Positions 4,411 through 34,742 of a stretch of DNA of 34,742 nt are shown here, in pieces (position 1 is the stretch's first letter; the number at the start of each line of letters is the position of its first letter). Source of the stretch: a virus. The DNA lies in the IMG/VR virus record IMGVR_UViG_3300025508_000069, positions 1 to 34,742 of that record, one strand, 5' to 3'. The notes under the pieces were generated by a model that was not told the DNA's origin, searched no databases, and saw only the letters and a list, made by a program, of their open reading frames with translations. The position numbers and the translations under genes were made by a program.

Positions 4411-4764
4411 ATGAATTACAATGCAAACACACTAATTGATAGGTTACTATATGCTAACAATATTAGCCAATCGCAAAAAAATACCATCAACTCAAGCCAT
4501 ATGAATATATCAGATGATGGGGTATTGAATATGGAATTCGATGTACCTGGTTTCTCCAAAAATACAATTACAATCAAATCCGTTGGAAACCGATTGTTTA
4601 TTAATGGAGAAACTAGCGACCGAACACTTAACAAAGAGTATAAAATAGAACAGAAGTGGAATGCGGATGCCACGACTGCTAAAGTTTTGGATGGGGTACT
4701 TACTATCTCAATACCACCTTTAGAAGAATCTGATAAGAGGGTAAAAACAATATCAGTTAAATAA
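4411..4764 (+). CDS. hsp20: Hsp20 family small heat-shock protein
   Basis: This is a small heat-shock protein with an alpha-crystallin domain, an ATP-independent holdase that binds unfolding proteins. The 117 residues have a short N-terminal arm (1-27) and the crystallin domain (about 28-105). Signature segments are FDVPGFSKNTITI (43-55), LFINGE (62-67) and A-x-x-x-x-GVLTISIP ending at 102. The C-terminal tail has an I-x-V motif (ISV, 114-116), which in this family docks on a neighbouring subunit. The length is short compared with most bacterial Hsp20 proteins (about 140-150), mainly through the short arm. Hsp20 genes are known in T4-like marine phages, where they are thought to help virion protein folding. 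The stop overlaps the next start (TAATG). Confidence 0.9.
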   Translation: MNYNANTLIDRLLYANNISQSQKNTINSSHMNISDDGVLNMEFDVPGFSKNTITIKSVGNRLFINGETSDRTLNKEYKIEQKWNADATTAKVLDGVLTISIPPLEESDKRVKTISVK

Positions 4765-5382: not shown

Positions 5383-6291
5383 ATGCAGAATTTAGGATAC
5401 GCTTGTATCAACGAAACATTGGGTTCTCAGAAGCCTAGAATTACTACCAATCGTAGTATGATTAAGAGAACGTTCAAAGAGCGTGGTGTAGAATACGCAT
5501 CAGAGCTGAGTCTTCAGAATTGTAGAGATTTGATTGAGATTATCAAATGGAATCATCAGAACGGTATTAACTTCTTTAGAATTACTTCAGGTTTATTTCC
5601 GTGGTATTCTGAATATAAGTTATCAGATATGCCACATGCCAATCGTATCAAAACCCTATTAGAAGGTGCTGGTAATCTTGCTACTAAGTATGGTCAACGT
5701 ATTACGACTCACCCTGGCCCATTCAACGTATTACCATCGCCAAATGATAGAGTAGTACAAAATACCATTGATGAACTAACAGACCATGCTGAAGTGTTCG
5801 ACCTTATGGGATTATCACAAACTCCATACAATAAGATTAATATCCATTGTAATGGTGTTTACGGAGATAAGATTACTGCTATGGATAGATTCTGTAAGAA
5901 CTTTGATAGACTCCCTCAGTCGGCACAAAACAGATTGACTGTAGAGAATGATGATAAGGCTAGTATGTATTCTGTAACAGATTTAATGTACATTCACGAA
6001 CGTATCGGTATTCCAATTGTATTTGATTATCATCATCATAAGTTTTGTACAGGTGGGTTAACAGAAGAAGAAGCTCTTAAACTTGCAGTTAGTACTTGGG
6101 GTGATATTAAGCCTGTAGTTCATTATTCAGAATCTAAATCATTACACGAAGAGAATGATAAGATTAAACCACAAGCACATTCAGATTACATTTCAGAATA
6201 TATAAATACTTATGGATTAGATGTAGATATTATGGTAGAAGCTAAGAAGAAAGAATTAACCCTAGCTCAGTACAAAAGCGTGCACGCATGA
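5383..6291 (+). CDS. uvdE: UV-damage endonuclease (UvdE/UVDE family)
   Basis: UvdE nicks DNA immediately 5' of UV photoproducts and starts an excision-repair route independent of UvrABC. The 302 residues match the family along the whole length, with a TIM-barrel set of metal ligands: THPG (H110), INIH (H155), TVENDD (E188), FDYHHH (D215-H218), HYSES (H247), AHSDY (H266) and VEAK (E286). Other signatures are GYACIN near the N-terminus, RITSGLFPW (66-74) and HPGPFNVLPSPND (110-122). The length is normal for the bacterial enzyme, and no key ligand appears missing. It has its own host-type promoter, which suggests early expression. This would repair irradiated phage genomes or damage during infection in sunlit water. 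No Shine-Dalgarno is present; the leader is A-rich. Confidence 0.93.
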   Translation: MQNLGYACINETLGSQKPRITTNRSMIKRTFKERGVEYASELSLQNCRDLIEIIKWNHQNGINFFRITSGLFPWYSEYKLSDMPHANRIKTLLEGAGNLATKYGQRITTHPGPFNVLPSPNDRVVQNTIDELTDHAEVFDLMGLSQTPYNKINIHCNGVYGDKITAMDRFCKNFDRLPQSAQNRLTVENDDKASMYSVTDLMYIHERIGIPIVFDYHHHKFCTGGLTEEEALKLAVSTWGDIKPVVHYSESKSLHEENDKIKPQAHSDYISEYINTYGLDVDIMVEAKKKELTLAQYKSVHA

Positions 6292-7533: not shown

Positions 7534-8175
7534 ATGAGTGATTTATACAACGATGGTAGAAGTACAACTACTGGTAATATAGATGCAAACTACGAAACCA
7601 CAGGAAAAACAGAAAAGGAAAAGTGGTTTCAGGAGTTTAGAGAGTTTGATTATGGTATTGATATTAAAGATAATATTATATTAATCCAAGATGATATATC
7701 GGCTGGATTAACATTTGATATTATTTCAAAGGTTAGGTTACTAAAAAAGATTAACCCAGAACTAAAATCAATAACCGTACTATTAAATTCAGGTGGTGGG
7801 GATGTTGTAGAAACATTAGGATTAATAGATTATATCCGAAGCCTAAACCAAAGTGATGGAATTAAAACTAACATAGTTTGTAGAGGCATGGCAATGAGTG
7901 CAGCAGCACTACTATTAGCAGCAGGAACTGGTCTTAGAGCAGCATCCAAACATTCTAAGATAATGGTTCACCAATTATCATCTTACGCAGGGGGTAAGTT
8001 ATCTGATTTAAAATCGAATGCTAAGTTTGCTGAATCATTAGAGAATGATTGTAATGAGATTATGGCTGAATGTACAAATAAAGATAAACAATGGTGGTCT
8101 GATAACCAACAAAACGATTACTTCCTAAACTCAGAGGAAGCATTAGAATTAGGAATAATAGATAAAATAATATAA
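7534..8175 (+). CDS. clpP: ClpP-type serine protease
   Basis: This is a ClpP-fold peptidase, which forms ring-shaped chambers that cut unfolded or tagged proteins; phage members can also act as prohead proteases. The triad appears intact: Ser122 in GMAMSAAALLLAAG, His146 in IMVHQL and Asp195 in QNDYFLNSEEA. The Gly-rich strand LLNSGGGDV (83-91) and the C-terminal EALELGIID also match. The first 40 residues are polar and look unstructured, longer than the usual ClpP propeptide. No AAA+ unfoldase of the ClpX type is in the window, so it may use a host partner or act alone. The groES gene starts four bases after its stop, which suggests joint expression from the promoter at 7473. Confidence 0.88.
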   Translation: MSDLYNDGRSTTTGNIDANYETTGKTEKEKWFQEFREFDYGIDIKDNIILIQDDISAGLTFDIISKVRLLKKINPELKSITVLLNSGGGDVVETLGLIDYIRSLNQSDGIKTNIVCRGMAMSAAALLLAAGTGLRAASKHSKIMVHQLSSYAGGKLSDLKSNAKFAESLENDCNEIMAECTNKDKQWWSDNQQNDYFLNSEEALELGIIDKII

Positions 8176-8178
8176 GTT

Positions 8179-8478
8179 ATGGAAACAAAATACAAACCTT
8201 TAGGGGACAGAGTAGTCATTGAGATTATTAAAAGAAACGATGATAAAACATCAGGTGGATTATACAAACCACAGGGAAACGATACAACTATGACAGGGAC
8301 TGTTATAGCAGTGGGAAAGGGATTATATACACATACAGGTAAGATGATTCCAATGAGTGTAAAAGTGGGTGATACCGTATTATTAGATGGTACTGGATTC
8401 AAACATAAGAATGGTAAGAACACATACAACATATACAGAGAGAGTGAGTTACTATCAATATTAGATGAAATCATCTAA
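8179..8478 (+). CDS. groES: GroES-type co-chaperonin
   Basis: The 99 residues follow the GroES (Cpn10) pattern: PLGDRVVIEII (7-17), a mobile loop around DDKTSGGLYKP (21-31), then GTVIAVGKGLYTHTGK (40-55) and KVGDTVLL (62-69). GroES caps the GroEL folding chamber. T4 encodes its own version (gp31) so that GroEL can fold the major capsid protein. This protein resembles cellular GroES more than gp31. In the mobile loop the usual Ile-rich triplet that contacts GroEL is replaced by GLY (27-29), which might tune its affinity. No GroEL gene is in the window, so host GroEL is the likely partner. It is coupled closely to clpP upstream. Confidence 0.92.
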   Translation: METKYKPLGDRVVIEIIKRNDDKTSGGLYKPQGNDTTMTGTVIAVGKGLYTHTGKMIPMSVKVGDTVLLDGTGFKHKNGKNTYNIYRESELLSILDEII

Positions 8479-27826: not shown

Positions 27827-28249
27827 ATGGCAAAAGGTAATTGGAGTCACATCCAAAAGTCAAAAGGACATAAGAGTGGGTTGGAAACTCGTATAGATGA
27901 ACAACTCCAATCACAAGGTATTGATGGTGAATACGAACAACACGAAGTAAAGTACATCATACCACAAACAAATCATACTTACAGACCTGATTTTAGATTA
28001 CCTAATGGTATCTTCATTGAGTCTAAGGGTTGGTTTCTTCCAGAGGATAGAAAGAAGCATTTACTTATCAAAGAACAAAACCCTAATATAGATTTAAGGT
28101 TTGTTTTACAATCACCAAACGGTAAAATATATAAGGGTTCTAAAACTACATATTCCCAATGGTGTGAGAAGCATGGGTTCAAATGGGCTGGTAAGGAAAT
28201 ACCACAATCGTGGATAGATGAAAAAGAAAGTGTAAATTTCTTTGGTTAA
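27827..28249 (+). CDS. T7-type endonuclease I (Holliday-junction resolvase)
   Basis: This PDDEXK-type nuclease cuts branched DNA such as Holliday junctions. The catalytic residues fall at the same positions as in T7 endonuclease I: Glu20 (GLE), Asp55 (YRPDF), Glu65 and Lys67 (IESKG). Family patterns also match at DRKKHLLIKEQNP (74-86), LRFVLQSPNGKIYKGSKTTY (90-109) and WCEKHGFKWA (112-121). The length is 140 residues against 149 in T7, so the gene is complete. T4 itself uses a different enzyme (endonuclease VII) for debranching before packaging, so this is a replacement. It starts four bases after a tail gene, and its own 3' end carries the promoter for the primase gene. Confidence 0.93.
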   Translation: MAKGNWSHIQKSKGHKSGLETRIDEQLQSQGIDGEYEQHEVKYIIPQTNHTYRPDFRLPNGIFIESKGWFLPEDRKKHLLIKEQNPNIDLRFVLQSPNGKIYKGSKTTYSQWCEKHGFKWAGKEIPQSWIDEKESVNFFG

Positions 28250-28279: not shown

Positions 28280-29218
28280 ATGGAAGATAGACTATTAACA
28301 TTACTGGAATCGGTAATAGGTATTTCGAAGAAAACATCAGGAAATAACTATGCCTTTTATTCTCCATTCGCAGAACATTATAAACCAAAGTTAGAGATAA
28401 ACATTGAGTTAAACGCCGAAGGTAACAACCCTTGGCATTGTTGGATATCCGATGAAAAGGGTAAAACTATAAACTCATTATTCAGAAAGTTAAAGGTATC
28501 TAAGGATGTTTGGGATGAGCATAATTCCATATTCAGTAAGAAATATAAATTCCAAAATTTACCAATAAACGAACAGACTGGTAATAATTTGGTCGTATTA
28601 CCAACGGAATACCAGCCATTATGGAAGCCATCATCCTCAGTTATTAGAAAACACGCATTACGTTATTTAGACCAGCGTGGGGTTTCCGCATCTGATATTA
28701 TAAAGTATAGTATTGGGTATTGTGAGGATGGTGATTATAAACATAAAATAATTGTACCATCATATGATTTTAATGGTAGATTGAATTATTTCGTAGGTAG
28801 AAGTTTTTATGATACCACATACAAACATAAGAATCCAACTGTATCTAAAGATGTAGTGGGGTTTGATATGCTTGTTAATTGGGATTTACCAATTGTTATA
28901 TGTGAGGGTGTTTATGATGCAATCGCAATACGAATGAACGCAATACCACTATTCGGTAAATCACCACAATCAGAACTACAAAAGAAGATAATAGGTAAAG
29001 GTGTAAAGAAGATTTACATCGCATTAGATTCAGATGCTTTCACTAACGCATTAAGATTTGCACAAAATCTAATGAATGAGGGTGTTAGTGTCCACATAAT
29101 AGAACTTAAAGATTCAGACCCATCCGAAATGGGATTTGATGATTTTTACAAATTAATGAAAAATACAAAAGAACTTACTCTAACTAAATTGATGGAGTAT
29201 AAGCTAATGGGTGTATGA
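28280..29218 (+). CDS. DnaG-type DNA primase with degenerate zinc finger
   Basis: The primase makes RNA primers for lagging-strand synthesis. The toprim core is clear: ICEGVYDA (Glu209, Asp213), IALDSDA (Asp250, Asp252) and KDSDPSEMG (277-285), all needed for metal-dependent catalysis. The N-terminal zinc-finger region is recognisable but degraded: SPFAEHYKPKL (28-38) and WHCWIS (52-57), where four Cys ligands would be expected but only Cys54 (with His33 and His53) remains. The length is 312 residues (T4 gp61 has 342). The start at 28280 follows the promoter; an upstream TTG at 28262 lies inside the -7 box and is rejected. The stop overlaps the next start (ATGA), which couples it to the nuclease fusion. 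Confidence 0.88.
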   Translation: MEDRLLTLLESVIGISKKTSGNNYAFYSPFAEHYKPKLEINIELNAEGNNPWHCWISDEKGKTINSLFRKLKVSKDVWDEHNSIFSKKYKFQNLPINEQTGNNLVVLPTEYQPLWKPSSSVIRKHALRYLDQRGVSASDIIKYSIGYCEDGDYKHKIIVPSYDFNGRLNYFVGRSFYDTTYKHKNPTVSKDVVGFDMLVNWDLPIVICEGVYDAIAIRMNAIPLFGKSPQSELQKKIIGKGVKKIYIALDSDAFTNALRFAQNLMNEGVSVHIIELKDSDPSEMGFDDFYKLMKNTKELTLTKLMEYKLMGV

Positions 29219-32200
29219 GAAATATAACTAAGATTAAGTATGCTGGAAAGGTAAATAAGATTTACCATATAGCAGATGTACATATTAGAAATTTAAAAAG
29301 ACACTCAGAGTATAGAGATGTATTTAAGAATTTATATAAATACATTTCAGAAACAAAGACAGAAGATTCAATTATAGTATTAGCCGGTGATATAGTTCAC
29401 GCTAAAACGGATATGACTCCTGAAGTTATAGAGATGACTCAAACGTTCCTAAAAGAATTATCAAATTTACTACCAACGGTATTAATACCAGGCAATCACG
29501 ATGCAAACTTAAATAACCCATCGAGGTTAGATGCGTTATCTCCAATTGTTAATGCGCTAAATCATTCCAATTTACATTATCTAAAGGATGATGGTGTTTG
29601 GAGTATGGGTGGGTTAACATTCTCACATTCATCGGTATTTGGTGAATCAAAAGAAATAATCCCATCGGATGAAGTTAATGGTGATTACAAAATCGCATTA
29701 TATCATGGGCCTGTTGATAGGGTTGAAACTGAGCATGGATTCCAAATTGAGAATAAAAACGTAAATGTAGAATCATTTGATGGTTACGATTTAGTTCTAT
29801 TAGGAGATATTCACGTTCCAAACCAATCATTAAATTCAGAAGGTACTATTAAGTATTGTGGTTCAACTATTATGCAGAATCATGGTGAAGCTAAATATCC
29901 AGAGCATGGTATATTAGTTTGGGATGTTTCGACTAAAGAATCTGAGTTCGTTCCAATCCACAACGATTATGGGTACGTTACGGTGGACGTAGATGGTGGT
30001 AAAATAGTTGGTAACCCAATCATACCAAATAAGCCTCGAATGAGGGTTAGAGTGAAGGATACAACCCAATCTGATTTAAAGACTATATTAGCTGATATTA
30101 GAGTAGGCCGAAAAGTGCAGGAAGTTACAATCCAAAAGGTAATAACTGATACAAAGGATTCCACAGGCAGTACATCTGTAATCTTACAAAATGTAAGAGA
30201 TGTTGGGTTTCAAAATAAGCTTATTGAAGATTTCCTATCAGATAGATTCGTTGTTAGTGATGAACACTTAGAGGTTATCCGAAATATAAACAACGATATA
30301 AACTCCAAGCTAAGTCCAGCAGTAGGAATGAAGAATATTATATGGAAGCCAAAGACATTTGAGTTTTCTAATATGTTTTCATATGGTAGTGATAACACAA
30401 TTGATTTCAGTCAGATGAAAGGCGCTTATGGCATATTCGCTCCAAACGCTAGTGGTAAATCATCACTATGGGATGCACTATCGTTTTGTTTATTTGATAG
30501 ATGTTCCCGTACAAGCAAAGCACTTGATGTTTTAAATTATTCAAAGAATTCATTTGAATGTAAGTTTAACTTCGAAATTAACGGAGTAGATTATTTTATT
30601 GAACGTATTGCTAAGAAATCACCAAAGCGTGGTACTGTGAAGGTTGATGTTAACTTTTTCAGAATCAATGAGGATGGTTCTAATGAATCATTAAATGGAG
30701 AAGAACGTAGAGATACAAATTCAATGATTAGGCAGTATGTGGGTTCGTATGAGGACTTTACATTAACTGCAATGTCAAACCAATCTAATAGTAGTGGGTT
30801 CATTGAGAAAACACAAAAAGAGAGAAAAGAACTTCTTGCTCAATTCTTAGATATGGATGTATTTGAGGAACTATATTTTGTTGCAAACGAAGAAATCAAA
30901 GAATTAAGTGCTTTACTTAAAGATTATAAAAACCAAAACTTTACAGAGAAATTATCAGAAGCTAAGGATAGTTTAGTTGAAAATGAATCCGTACTATCAG
31001 ATGTTCAATCTAAATTAAATACACATCGTATAACAAAAGAAAAGATAACATCACAAATTGAGCTATTAATTCTAAAGTTAATTTCAGTCGACTCTACAAT
31101 AATTAATATCGATAAACTACATACTCTTAACAAATCACTTGGCAGTAATCTTAAATCAAAATCAAATGAGTGTACAGGTTACACCGATTCATTAGTATTA
31201 ATGTTAGATAAATTATCAAAAATTGAATCTGAATTTGAATCATACGACTTGATTGATTTAAAATCAAAGTATGTTAACTTTGAAAAATTTACTAAAATAA
31301 AAGATTATCTTCAAGAAGATTTGGATACAACAAATACTGAGATAATACATAAACAAAAACATTTAGATGGTATTGGTTCACTTTCATTTGATGATAATTG
31401 TGAACATTGTATTGCAAATAAAAACACACCATTTGCAAAACAAGCACAATCTTTAGAAACTGAAATAAAAGATTTATTAAAACACAAAAAAGAAAAACAA
31501 CTTGAATTTGATGAAGCTTGTATAAATAAAGCAAAGTTTGATGTTTCTGATATATTATCTAAAGTTAACAATTTACAGATATCAATTGATGATTATGAGA
31601 ATAAAATTGATAAGTTAGAGTTAGAATCAAAATCATGTAACTTAGAACTAACCGAGCTACAGACTCAAATTGATACAGTTAATGCTGATATTCAAAAATC
31701 AAATGAGCAAAAGGAATCGGTTGAGCATAACTCTAAAATACAATTAGAAATCGATAGTAGGAAAGAATCTCTAACCGAAATAGATAATCTTATTGATGAA
31801 ACAAATGATGAGTTAATTGATGTTAGTGGTAATATTCGTATTGCAAAGAACACAATTGAAACTGTCAATGATTCAATTAATAAGTTAGATTATATGGAAC
31901 GTAAGTATGAAGGGTATGAGTATTACCTTAAATGCGTTAAGAGGGATGGGATACCATATGAGTTAATATCAGATGTATTACCTAAGTTGGAGGTTGAAAT
32001 TAATAATATATTACAACCAATCGTAGATTTTCAGATACTACTTAATACTGATGGGAAAAACATTAATTCATACATTGCATATGGTGATGAAGAATTTTGG
32101 CCATTAGAGTTAACAAGTGGTATGGAGAAGTTTATATCATCGGTAGCAATCCGAACGGCACTTATCAACGTTTCAAACTTACCAAGACCAAACTTCATTG

Positions 32201-32388
32201 CAATTGATGAAGGATTTGGTTCATTAGATAGTGATAACTTCAACTCTCTATATTTATTATTTGATTACCTAAAGAGTCAATTTGACTTTTTAGTAACAAT
32301 ATCTCACATTGATAAAACGAGAGATATGGTAGACCAAATTATAGATATATCCAAAGTTGATGGATTTTCATCTATTAGATATTTATAA
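29215..32388 (+). CDS. gp47-gp46: Single-chain Mre11-Rad50 (gp47-gp46) nuclease/ATPase fusion
   Basis: The complex processes DNA ends for recombination-dependent replication and repair. Here both subunits form one chain of 1057 residues. The Mre11-like part (about 1-340) has IADVH (Asp21, His23), AGDIVH (Asp59), GNHD (93-96), YHG (His164) and LGDIH (198-200), a full metal-site set. The Rad50-like part (about 375-1057) has Walker A as APNASGKSS (409-417), coiled coils, a zinc-hook CEHC (729-732), a signature-like LTSGME (966-971) and Walker B IAIDEGFGSLD (995-1005). In T4 gp47 (339 aa) and gp46 (560 aa) are separate genes. The frame is continuous, with no stop or programmed frameshift between the parts. 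It begins inside the primase stop (ATGA) and ends within an ATATTTATAATA element. Confidence 0.93.
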   Translation: MRNITKIKYAGKVNKIYHIADVHIRNLKRHSEYRDVFKNLYKYISETKTEDSIIVLAGDIVHAKTDMTPEVIEMTQTFLKELSNLLPTVLIPGNHDANLNNPSRLDALSPIVNALNHSNLHYLKDDGVWSMGGLTFSHSSVFGESKEIIPSDEVNGDYKIALYHGPVDRVETEHGFQIENKNVNVESFDGYDLVLLGDIHVPNQSLNSEGTIKYCGSTIMQNHGEAKYPEHGILVWDVSTKESEFVPIHNDYGYVTVDVDGGKIVGNPIIPNKPRMRVRVKDTTQSDLKTILADIRVGRKVQEVTIQKVITDTKDSTGSTSVILQNVRDVGFQNKLIEDFLSDRFVVSDEHLEVIRNINNDINSKLSPAVGMKNIIWKPKTFEFSNMFSYGSDNTIDFSQMKGAYGIFAPNASGKSSLWDALSFCLFDRCSRTSKALDVLNYSKNSFECKFNFEINGVDYFIERIAKKSPKRGTVKVDVNFFRINEDGSNESLNGEERRDTNSMIRQYVGSYEDFTLTAMSNQSNSSGFIEKTQKERKELLAQFLDMDVFEELYFVANEEIKELSALLKDYKNQNFTEKLSEAKDSLVENESVLSDVQSKLNTHRITKEKITSQIELLILKLISVDSTIINIDKLHTLNKSLGSNLKSKSNECTGYTDSLVLMLDKLSKIESEFESYDLIDLKSKYVNFEKFTKIKDYLQEDLDTTNTEIIHKQKHLDGIGSLSFDDNCEHCIANKNTPFAKQAQSLETEIKDLLKHKKEKQLEFDEACINKAKFDVSDILSKVNNLQISIDDYENKIDKLELESKSCNLELTELQTQIDTVNADIQKSNEQKESVEHNSKIQLEIDSRKESLTEIDNLIDETNDELIDVSGNIRIAKNTIETVNDSINKLDYMERKYEGYEYYLKCVKRDGIPYELISDVLPKLEVEINNILQPIVDFQILLNTDGKNINSYIAYGDEEFWPLELTSGMEKFISSVAIRTALINVSNLPRPNFIAIDEGFGSLDSDNFNSLYLLFDYLKSQFDFLVTISHIDKTRDMVDQIIDISKVDGFSSIRYL

Positions 32389-32410: not shown

Positions 32411-34742
32411 ATGTCATTAACATTTAAAAAGTCTACACCTAAAAATTATAATAACTTAGATATACTAATTGAGGACACTACCCCGTTATCAAATAACTAC
32501 TTTAGGGTATCCGATGTACCATCAATATTATGTAAGGGTAAGAACCTATTAAGAATATCAGCCCACCCATCCCATTTCCTACCAGATTCTCAAATAATAG
32601 TAGATATAAAAGATGCTAATGGTGAGCCGATATATTTTGAAATTCCTGAGTATTTAGAAGGAGATAAGAGTAGAATAATATCTATTTGGATTTATCACGA
32701 TAAAGATGATTATAACACTGCTAATGGTGAAGCTGTAATATCATTATATGGAATTGCAAAGCGAGATGTAAGGCCGGGTCGTAATAATGCAATACCTGCT
32801 AAGTATGAAGGTAAGTATAATCTTAAATGGTCTACAACTGTAAATGTTGATAGAAATCGAAATAACATATCACCCGTAATATTTAACTCAACATTACTAC
32901 CAACCACAACATTATCAGAAAGTATTGATGTTTATAAAAACTCACCTACGGATGGTACTGAGTTAGAATTCACACCCATAACTGGAAACGGTGCAAATTA
33001 TTTATTTCGAGGTAAAACTCCAATAATTAAAACTACTGATGGTCAATTCCTTCCAGAAATGGTTGGTAATAATATATTTTTAGATACCTTTGTAGAACCA
33101 GCACTACCGATATCTAAATATGATAACCCATTAAATATAACATCATATACTTCATCAATTAAATCTATAATAGATACAAATACGGTTATCTTAGATACAC
33201 CGTTCACAACTACGTTTACAGATAGAGATGAATTAATACATACATTTAATCAAATAGATTCAGCTAATTACTCTGTATCATATTTCCAAGAAGAATCAAG
33301 GACTAATACTGAAAATCAACGTTCATTTGCAAATGTTACATTTAGTGGATTAGAACCAATCACCGGTGTAGTTGATAAAATAAAAGTATTAATTAAATCA
33401 GATGGGCTGCCGGGTGAGTTCGAATTACTAAACGAAGTAACAGTACCATTTAGTTCATCGGTGGCAATTAAAGTACCAATCCCATCTGAACACTTAAACG
33501 ACCCTAAAATATTAAAATTTCAATATCTAAACTCAATCGGTGAAATATCAAGAACTCAAACCAAATTAAGGCCATTTACATTCGAAGGTGGTAACTCATA
33601 TATAGGAGGTGATAAAAACCTTATAAGTGGTTCTATGTTTATTTCCAATGCACTTGGTACTGGAATTCAAATGGGTGGATTATCATCTGGATTTATACGT
33701 TCGGTTGGATTCGATGGACAAACATCAGCATCATTAGGAAAAGGCCCGGGTGGATTTATAATCTATAGTGGTTCTGGTAATATGCTAATCGGAGAAGACG
33801 TACTACATGGTGTTGGTATGCAGATGATTGGTGATAATGACGATAGACACTTTATATTTACAACAGATGGTGGTGGGTTATTAGATGTTAAAACTGATAA
33901 ATTCTTTATTGGTACAACTGCAAGTCAATTCATTAGTGGTTCTGATAGTAATATAGAAATCAGTTCATCGTTATTTCACTTAGACCCAAAAAACAATTCA
34001 TTAGTAATTGGCGCCGGTACAGTAATAAACGCAGCATTATCTGCAAATGAAATATTTACACCAGCAACAATTGGTGGTGTACAATCGACACGATTAAACG
34101 CATCCGCATCAATTGATTCAGGTGGATTCGCTAGATTCGTATCAGCATCTATTGGGGGATTTGAAGTAAGTACAACACAAATCAATTCAGCAAATAATAA
34201 TCTCATATTAAAATCAAATGGGCAAATTACAGCATCATCCGCAAATATAAATGGTGATATAGTAACTGACAATATAACTGCGACGGGTGGAACAATTGGT
34301 GGATTTGAATTAACTTCAACACAAATAAATTCAACAAACGATAATCTCATATTAAAATCAAATGGACAAATCACTGCTTCTTCTGCAAATATAAATGGTG
34401 ATATAGTAACTGACAATATAACTGCGACGGGTGGAACAATTGGTGGGTTTAGTATAAACACCGCAACCATATCATCATCAAATAATAATCTTATATTAAA
34501 GGATAGTGGCCAGATAACAGGTTCAACTGTATTATTTAGTGGTGGAACAATTGGTGGGTTTAGTATAAACACCGCAACCATATCATCATCAAATAATAAT
34601 CTTATATTAAAGGATAGTGGGCAAATTACAGGCTCAAATGTATTATTTAGTGGTGGAACAATCGCTGGATTTGAAGTAGCAAGTACTCAAATTAATTCAG
34701 TTAATGATAATCTAATCCTCAAATCAAGTGGACAGATTACAG
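32411..34742 (+). CDS. Tail-fibre-like protein with tandem repeats, 3' end outside window
   Basis: The frame runs from an ATG with GGAG eight to eleven bases upstream to the right edge without a stop, giving 777 visible residues. The N-terminal 200 residues are mixed and may be the attachment end. Middle parts are Ser/Thr/Asn/Gly-rich with beta alternation. From residue 581 the chain is built of tandem repeats starting IGGF and containing NLILK and GQIT. This is typical of elongated trimeric phage fibres. The long antisense open frame at 33976-34581 is a by-product of the repeats. An exact copy of the candidate late element precedes the gene. Host range or receptor binding is the likely role; the C-terminal tip, which would decide this, is not in the window. 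Confidence 0.75.
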   Translation, partial: MSLTFKKSTPKNYNNLDILIEDTTPLSNNYFRVSDVPSILCKGKNLLRISAHPSHFLPDSQIIVDIKDANGEPIYFEIPEYLEGDKSRIISIWIYHDKDDYNTANGEAVISLYGIAKRDVRPGRNNAIPAKYEGKYNLKWSTTVNVDRNRNNISPVIFNSTLLPTTTLSESIDVYKNSPTDGTELEFTPITGNGANYLFRGKTPIIKTTDGQFLPEMVGNNIFLDTFVEPALPISKYDNPLNITSYTSSIKSIIDTNTVILDTPFTTTFTDRDELIHTFNQIDSANYSVSYFQEESRTNTENQRSFANVTFSGLEPITGVVDKIKVLIKSDGLPGEFELLNEVTVPFSSSVAIKVPIPSEHLNDPKILKFQYLNSIGEISRTQTKLRPFTFEGGNSYIGGDKNLISGSMFISNALGTGIQMGGLSSGFIRSVGFDGQTSASLGKGPGGFIIYSGSGNMLIGEDVLHGVGMQMIGDNDDRHFIFTTDGGGLLDVKTDKFFIGTTASQFISGSDSNIEISSSLFHLDPKNNSLVIGAGTVINAALSANEIFTPATIGGVQSTRLNASASIDSGGFARFVSASIGGFEVSTTQINSANNNLILKSNGQITASSANINGDIVTDNITATGGTIGGFELTSTQINSTNDNLILKSNGQITASSANINGDIVTDNITATGGTIGGFSINTATISSSNNNLILKDSGQITGSTVLFSGGTIGGFSINTATISSSNNNLILKDSGQITGSNVLFSGGTIAGFEVASTQINSVNDNLILKSSGQIT
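34151..34742 (+). repeat. Tandem repeats in the fibre gene (144-bp and 111-bp units)
   Basis: Units begin at 34151, 34295, 34439, 34550 and 34661, each with (I)GGF or IAGF. The first two are 144 bases (48 residues), the next two 111 bases (37 residues), and the last runs off the edge. The longer units carry an extra block ending in NINGDIVTDNITATGG, which the shorter ones replace by VLFSGG. Parts of neighbouring units are almost identical at DNA level. Confidence 0.9.

What the first reader, a model, noticed from the sequence alone, without database searches (positions are those of the whole stretch)
29215..32388. Mre11-like nuclease and Rad50-like ATPase fused in one chain
All metal-binding motifs of the gp47/SbcD/Mre11 nuclease are followed in the same uninterrupted frame by Walker A, a CxxC zinc hook, a signature motif and Walker B of gp46/SbcC/Rad50. 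In T4 and in cells these are two proteins. A covalent 1:1 link fixes stoichiometry and limits how ATP-driven opening can move the nuclease. The Walker A also begins with Ala instead of the usual Gly (APNASGKSS).
Basis: partly seen in the sequence, partly recalled or inferred. Interest (0 to 1): 0.62.

Follow-up and report, generated by a model that had tools for sequence, protein, structure and literature searches.

The report
Phage Mre11–Rad50 one-chain DNA-end nuclease
This phage gene really does join the two halves of the Mre11–Rad50 DNA-end-processing machine into one protein, but hundreds of related environmental phage sequences and several giant viruses carry the same kind of joined protein, and such fusions were described in 2011, so it is a well-supported yet ordinary member of a known family.

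Summary
Window 29215-32388 (+) is one uninterrupted 1057-aa frame. A Metallophos nuclease (residues 15-202) is followed by a cap domain, a two-helix motif and a ~10-residue linker, then a Rad50/SbcC ATPase with a CxxC hook. It is not a sequencing artefact: 113 of 133 relatives carry the intact fusion, 16 are cut by contig ends, and none found is a plain gp47+gp46 pair. The junction is gap-free in 53 proteins and under strong purifying selection.

The "all metal motifs" claim needs one correction: motif V is GDIH, with an invariant Asp where Mre11 has His. The Ala-first Walker A is real and invariant in this clade, so it is not a quirk of one contig.

It is not new in kind. Yoshida, Claverie and Ogata (2011, PMC3175470) described Mre11/Rad50 fusions. 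They reported the same motif II and motif V states in Mimivirus R555, and R555-like marine sequences beside phage primase and T7-type endonuclease genes. That is this gene's neighbourhood. The best full-length structural match here is a Tupanvirus (giant-virus) protein.

Most likely role: the phage's own Mre11–Rad50, making 3' ends for recombination-dependent replication. Possibly newer side-leads: relatives in which the fused gene is broken by endonuclease genes or by part of an intein.

The parts
29215..32388 (+). Mre11-Rad50 (SbcD-SbcC) fusion gene, 1057 aa
29215..29925 (+). Mre11-like metallophosphoesterase nuclease domain (residues ~1-237)
   Evidence: Pfam Metallophos 15-202; AF2 model
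29275..29283 (+). motif I D21-x-H23
   Evidence: invariant in 53 homologues
29386..29400 (+). motif II GDIVH (58-62)
   Evidence: key residues invariant in 53
29491..29502 (+). motif III GNHD (93-96)
   Evidence: invariant in 53
29704..29706 (+). motif IV H164
   Evidence: invariant in 53
29803..29814 (+). motif V GDIH (197-200): Asp198 where canonical Mre11 has His
   Evidence: invariant in 53; same substitution reported for Mimivirus R555; GDIH also in L004, pT24, PTm1, MA9V-1, GHIH in PAU, GHxH in T4 and S-SSM7
29938..30138 (+). capping-like domain (residues ~242-308)
   Evidence: secondary structure of the AF2 model
30202..30309 (+). two-helix (helix-loop-helix, Rad50-binding) segment, residues 330-344 and 349-365
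   Evidence: AF2 model; position matches the Mre11 HLH described for T. maritima
30310..30339 (+). linker between the Mre11 and Rad50 parts (residues ~366-375)
   Evidence: AF2 model; gap-free in 53 homologues
30340..30849 (+). Rad50 N-terminal ATPase lobe (residues 376-545)
   Evidence: Pfam AAA_23; AF2
30439..30462 (+). Walker A APNASGKS (409-416), Ala409 invariant in the clade
30856..31938 (+). antiparallel coiled coil (residues ~548-908)
   Evidence: helices in the AF2 model; fastest-evolving part, dN/dS 0.17-0.32
31399..31410 (+). zinc hook CEHC (729-732)
   Evidence: both Cys invariant in 53
31942..32385 (+). Rad50 C-terminal ATPase lobe (residues ~910-1057)
32110..32130 (+). signature motif LTSGMEK (966-972), SGME in place of canonical SGGE
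   Evidence: S, G, M, E invariant in 53
32194..32229 (+). Walker B and D-loop FIAIDEGFGSLD (994-1005)
28280..29218 (+). DnaG-type primase directly upstream; its stop overlaps the fusion start (ATGA)
   Evidence: primase upstream in 126 of 128 loci, ATGA at the fusion start in 97 of 130; start taken at the conserved MEDR (inference)
27827..28249 (+). T7-type endonuclease I (junction resolvase) upstream of the primase
   Evidence: Pfam PF05367 E 6.7e-55; upstream in 112 of 117 loci

Best explanation
The gene encodes a one-chain Mre11-Rad50 (SbcD-SbcC) enzyme of an aquatic tailed phage, belonging to the fusion family first described for Mimivirus R555. Two chains probably dimerise through the Rad50 heads (ATP-bound) and the CxxC zinc hooks, giving the usual M2R2 assembly from two polypeptides instead of four. 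ATP binding and hydrolysis gate access of DNA ends to the metal-dependent nuclease. The most likely job is the one gp46/gp47 does in T4: resecting phage DNA ends and breaks to 3' single strands for strand invasion by a phage RecA/UvsX-like protein, feeding recombination-dependent replication, with the neighbouring primase and endonuclease I serving the same pathway. Shown: the single frame, its conservation, the occupied catalytic motifs, the conserved gene order, and presence in phages that have a RecA-like recombinase and no separate Rad50-type gene detected. Inferred: dimer architecture, nuclease and ATPase activity, and role in replication.
For: Both halves pass curated cut-offs in one frame. 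Every known catalytic position is occupied by an invariant residue in 53 homologues. 113 of 133 loci are intact fusions, 16 are cut by contig ends, and all 13 contigs newly found with a query covering only a short intein-Rad50 stretch are fused too. Strong purifying selection runs through the junction. The predicted fold is nuclease-cap-HLH-linker-Rad50 (pLDDT 82), with PDB matches to Mre11-Rad50 complexes and best viral match Tupanvirus 'putative DNA repair protein' over 1315 alignment columns (E 1e-77). Gene order endonuclease I - primase - fusion is conserved. In 11 large records a RecA-like gene is found in 10, and no second AAA_23 protein in any; in Mel-JY01 the RecA is followed by polymerase and gp41-type helicase genes.
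Against: No biochemistry is known to me for this clade. Three conserved departures from canonical enzymes (Asp in motif V, Ala opening Walker A, SGME signature) could alter activity. The window is a 34.7-kb fragment, so this phage's own recombinase was not seen. pTM is 0.45 for the single-chain model, so relative placement of the domains is not reliable. Two records (G002, G003) gave no AAA_23 hit although they carry the gene, so absence of a second copy rests on a search with limited sensitivity.
Confidence: 0.87

Rival explanations
1. The fusion is an assembly or sequencing artefact that removed a stop or start between two adjacent genes.
For: Adjacent or near-adjacent gp47-gp46 genes are the layout in two-gene phages, so one lost stop could join them.
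Against: The same frame is uninterrupted in 113 of 133 loci from many different metagenomes and in complete named phage genomes; the junction has no gaps in 53 sequences.
Confidence: 0.01
2. The gene also makes a free Rad50-like chain by internal initiation near the junction, so the cell contains both fused and separate subunits.
For: ATG codons lie at residues 372 and 387; M387 is invariant.
Against: M372 is not conserved in the alignment (10 or fewer of 53). M387 follows the first Rad50 strand (376-385), so a start there would drop that strand, and its invariance fits a structural role. No well-spaced ribosome-binding site is seen by eye.
Confidence: 0.06
3. The fusion serves host-genome degradation or counter-defence (cutting hairpins or foreign DNA) more than phage recombination.
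For: T4 gp46/gp47 is annotated as needed for host-DNA degradation as well as recombination; SbcCD-type enzymes cut hairpins (literature).
Against: Conserved linkage with primase and endonuclease I and co-occurrence with a phage RecA point to replication and recombination. The roles are not exclusive.
Confidence: 0.12

Closest known systems
Mimivirus R555-type Mre11/Rad50 fusion proteins (Yoshida, Claverie & Ogata 2011, PMC3175470)
   Same: Order nuclease-cap-HLH-short linker-Rad50 in one chain; His at the last motif II position and Asp at the first motif V His; marine metagenome homologues next to phage primases and T7-type endonucleases, as here. Best viral structure match is the Tupanvirus protein.
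   Different: About 1050 aa against 1351 aa; phage not giant virus; Ala-first Walker A not reported for R555 in the text read.
T4 gp47/gp46 and cyanophage homologues
   Same: Same two domains; same inferred role in 3' end formation for recombination-dependent replication.
   Different: Two separate genes in T4, S-SSM7, SIOphi and Vibrio phage D239; Gly-first Walker A and GHxH motif V in T4 and S-SSM7; the fused proteins form one side of a supported branch against these four.
Fusions of jumbo phages pT24, PTm1, MA9V-1 and PAU ('metallo-phosphoesterase') and of LR756501
   Same: One-chain Mre11-Rad50 of 1202-1326 aa; GDIH in all but PAU.
   Different: LR756501 is 25% identical to the window protein, and the named jumbo phages are 23-24% identical to LR756501; Gly-first Walker A; longer chain; primase not found upstream of the LR756501 gene (L004).
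E. coli SbcCD and archaeal/eukaryotic Mre11-Rad50
   Same: Fold and catalytic motifs.
   Different: Two proteins; canonical GHxH motif V (P. furiosus) and SGGE signature.

Membership tests
R555-type Mre11/Rad50 fusion | Mre11-like domain N-terminal to Rad50-like domain in one frame | tested here: met
R555-type Mre11/Rad50 fusion | GDxxH in motif II and Asp for the first His of motif V, as reported for R555 | tested here: met
   GDIVH and GDIH; D59, H62, D198 and H200 invariant in 53 homologues; R555 description
R555-type Mre11/Rad50 fusion | cap and HLH regions kept, with a linker of about 9-12 residues before Rad50 | tested here: met
   AF2 model: cap ~242-308, helices 330-344 and 349-365, linker ~366-375; expectation
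R555-type Mre11/Rad50 fusion | full-length similarity to the giant-virus fusions | tested here: met
   Tupanvirus match over 1315 columns, 26% identity, E 1e-77; R555 itself was not compared directly
Mre11/SbcD nuclease | five metallophosphoesterase motifs with all ligands | tested here: inconclusive
   all motifs present, but motif V has Asp198 for His; metal binding untested
Rad50/SbcC ATPase | Walker A, Q-loop, signature, Walker B, D-loop, H-loop | tested here: met
   all present, key residues invariant, with Ala409 and Met970 departing from the consensus
Rad50/SbcC ATPase | CxxC zinc hook at the coiled-coil apex | tested here: met
   C729 and C732 invariant, mid-coil in the model
Mre11-Rad50 complex | ATP-gated Mn2+-dependent nuclease, M2R2 assembly | not testable with these tools
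   needs purified protein

The most novel reading that the evidence does not exclude
The clade is a biochemically distinct Mre11-Rad50: the covalent link plus three clade-conserved departures (Asp in motif V, Ala-first Walker A, SGME signature) give different metal use or ATP gating from the two-protein enzyme. The fused gene is also a recurrent target for splitting elements, so that some phages rebuild the enzyme from pieces, by two-polypeptide assembly (L036, L003) or by protein trans-splicing at Walker A (L050).
Probability: 0.2. Interest if true: 0.5.

Novelty: new member of a known kind. Interest (0 to 1): 0.22.

Why it matters
A single-gene enzyme would be convenient for structural work on how ATP opens access to the nuclease. 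It also corrects annotations, since complete phage genomes label these proteins only 'metallo-phosphoesterase' or 'AAA domain containing protein'. The finding itself mainly extends a 2011 report.

Tried and rejected
Assembly error: rejected, independent homologues are fused. Group I intron at the L036/L003 insertions: no Rfam intron match even at permissive thresholds; those insertions also lack intein splicing motifs by eye. Fused relatives on plasmids: none covering both halves. Cellular genomes: only 2 loci, both on short MAG contigs (11.4 and 4.1 kb) that look viral. Literature on Mel-JY01: none held. T4 Rad50 2026 paper searched for stoichiometry and HLH statements: none found. First count of primase neighbours (63 of 128) was wrong because overlapping genes were excluded; corrected.

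Full report
OBSERVATION. The reported frame is exactly as described: window 29215-32388 (+), ATG start, 1057 aa, no internal stop. Pfam puts Metallophos on residues 15-202 and AAA_23 on 385-591, both over cut-off. PHROG 77 (SbcC-like) covers 358-1055. NCBIfam lists SbcC, SbcD, Rad50 and Mre11 models, below their curated cut-offs. Sequence matches among solved structures are SbcC, Rad50 and Mre11 for the respective halves. The window is a 34.7-kb IMG/VR virus record.

IS THE FUSION REAL. Of 133 loci in hand, counting the window and some contigs fetched twice, 113 are uninterrupted fusions and 16 are cut by a contig end. Four remain. L004 is in fact one 1202-aa frame. L003 and L036 are interrupted by an endonuclease-like gene. 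L050 is interrupted by part of an intein. No plain two-gene relative turned up, even with a query covering only a short intein-Rad50 stretch (13 new contigs, all fused). The junction (330-389) is gap-free in 53 non-redundant homologues apart from one gap in one row. Nei-Gojobori dN/dS over residues 340-380 is 0-0.085, and the coiled coil is the most relaxed part (0.17-0.32).

ANATOMY. AlphaFold2 on a 53-row alignment (mean pLDDT 82, pTM 0.45) gives a nuclease domain, a cap (about 242-308), two helices at 330-344 and 349-365 where Mre11 carries its Rad50-binding helix-loop-helix, a linker of about 10 residues, the Rad50 N lobe from 376, a coil to about 908 with the hook at 729-732, and the C lobe. 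The low pTM means that domain placement should not be trusted. Yoshida et al. argued from the T. maritima complex that a 9-12-residue linker in this order fits the two-protein architecture; the linker here has that length.

DEPARTURES FROM CANON. Motif V is GDIH: an invariant Asp replaces the first His (alignment to P. furiosus Mre11 GHIH). Walker A begins with Ala in all 53 homologues and in the more distant contigs, so it is a clade feature; the jumbo-phage fusions and three of the four two-gene homologues checked have Gly, the fourth (SIOphi) not matching the pattern used. The signature reads SGME, not SGGE, in all 53.

CONTEXT. T7-type endonuclease I, DnaG-like primase and the fusion lie in this order. 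The primase is upstream in 126 of 128 loci, endonuclease I in 112 of 117, and the fusion start reads ATGA, consistent with overlap of the primase stop, in 97 of 130. In 11 large phage records no AAA_23 protein other than the fusion is detected; the search missed the fusion itself in two records that do carry the gene. Some records hold small separate metallophosphoesterases of 225-251 aa. A RecA/UvsX-type gene (phrog_97; annotated RecA at the same place in Mel-JY01) is found in 10 of 11. In Mel-JY01 it is followed by polymerase and gp41-type helicase genes.

MECHANISM. Best reading: the phage's own Mre11-Rad50, working as gp46/gp47 does in T4 to make 3' ends for recombination-dependent replication. 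Activity, dimer form and role are inferred. The link fixes 1:1 stoichiometry by construction; whether it restrains ATP-driven motion is unknown.

COMPARISON WITH THE KNOWN. Yoshida, Claverie and Ogata (2011, PMC3175470) described Mimivirus R555 and twelve further fusions, noted His in motif II and Asp in motif V of R555, and found many R555-like sequences in marine metagenomes beside phage primases and T7-type endonuclease genes. This window matches that description feature by feature. The best viral structure matches are giant-virus proteins: Tupanvirus (1315 columns, 26% identity, E 1e-77), Harvfovirus, Yasminevirus and others. Fused proteins also lie in complete named phages: Mel-JY01 (41% identity) and, more distantly, pT24, PTm1, MA9V-1 and PAU, labelled 'metallo-phosphoesterase'. 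In a 19-row tree the 15 fused proteins form one side of a supported branch against four concatenated two-gene pairs. Long branches, few two-gene rows and a midpoint root mean that a single origin is compatible, not shown; the 2011 paper favoured several origins.

VERDICT. The score is low for the finding itself. The side-leads (L050, L036, L003) may be the more original material: L036 and L003 resemble the split nrdA and gene 43 cases of T4-related phages, where the pieces make active enzyme (PMC2988022).

Noticed in passing
L050:1357-3654 (IMGVR_UViG_3300025030_001289): A C-terminal intein portion of about 129 aa ending ...GIVSHN is joined to the Rad50 half right after the Walker A GK, with a free-standing ORF at 102-1385 (no Pfam match, looks like an endonuclease gene). 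It resembles an atypically split intein in a fractured gene; the N-terminal half lies off the contig. Weak but consistent intein hits; only one example found.
   Followed up: partly
L036:5998-10122 and L003:4953-9178: In two distantly related phages the fusion gene is broken at the same place, just after the GDIH motif, by different endonuclease-like ORFs (weak NUMOD3 in L036, TnsA-like nuclease in L003). Both 5' pieces end in a similar extra tail (ELE.YL..GW). No intron match in Rfam. Looks like genes in pieces.
   Followed up: partly
L132 (genome contigs, Candidatus Nitrosopelagicus MAG contig): A contig binned into an archaeal MAG carries the fusion with endonuclease I and primase upstream; probably a viral contig in the bin, or a hint of a host link.
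   Followed up: no
window 5383-6291, 4411-4764, 8179-8478, 7534-8175: The phage also encodes a UvdE-type UV endonuclease, an Hsp20 chaperone, a GroES-like co-chaperonin and a ClpP-type (head maturation) protease.
   Followed up: no
window 32411-34741: Large ORF running off the contig end with repeated segments (SSNNNLILKDSGQITGS-like), probably a tail or fibre protein; no Pfam or PHROG match.
   Followed up: no
phage records pT24, PTm1, MA9V-1, PAU and Mel-JY01 (L149, L150, L157, L151, L002): Fused Mre11-Rad50 proteins are annotated only as 'metallo-phosphoesterase' or 'AAA domain containing protein'; the fusion is not named in those labels.
   Followed up: partly
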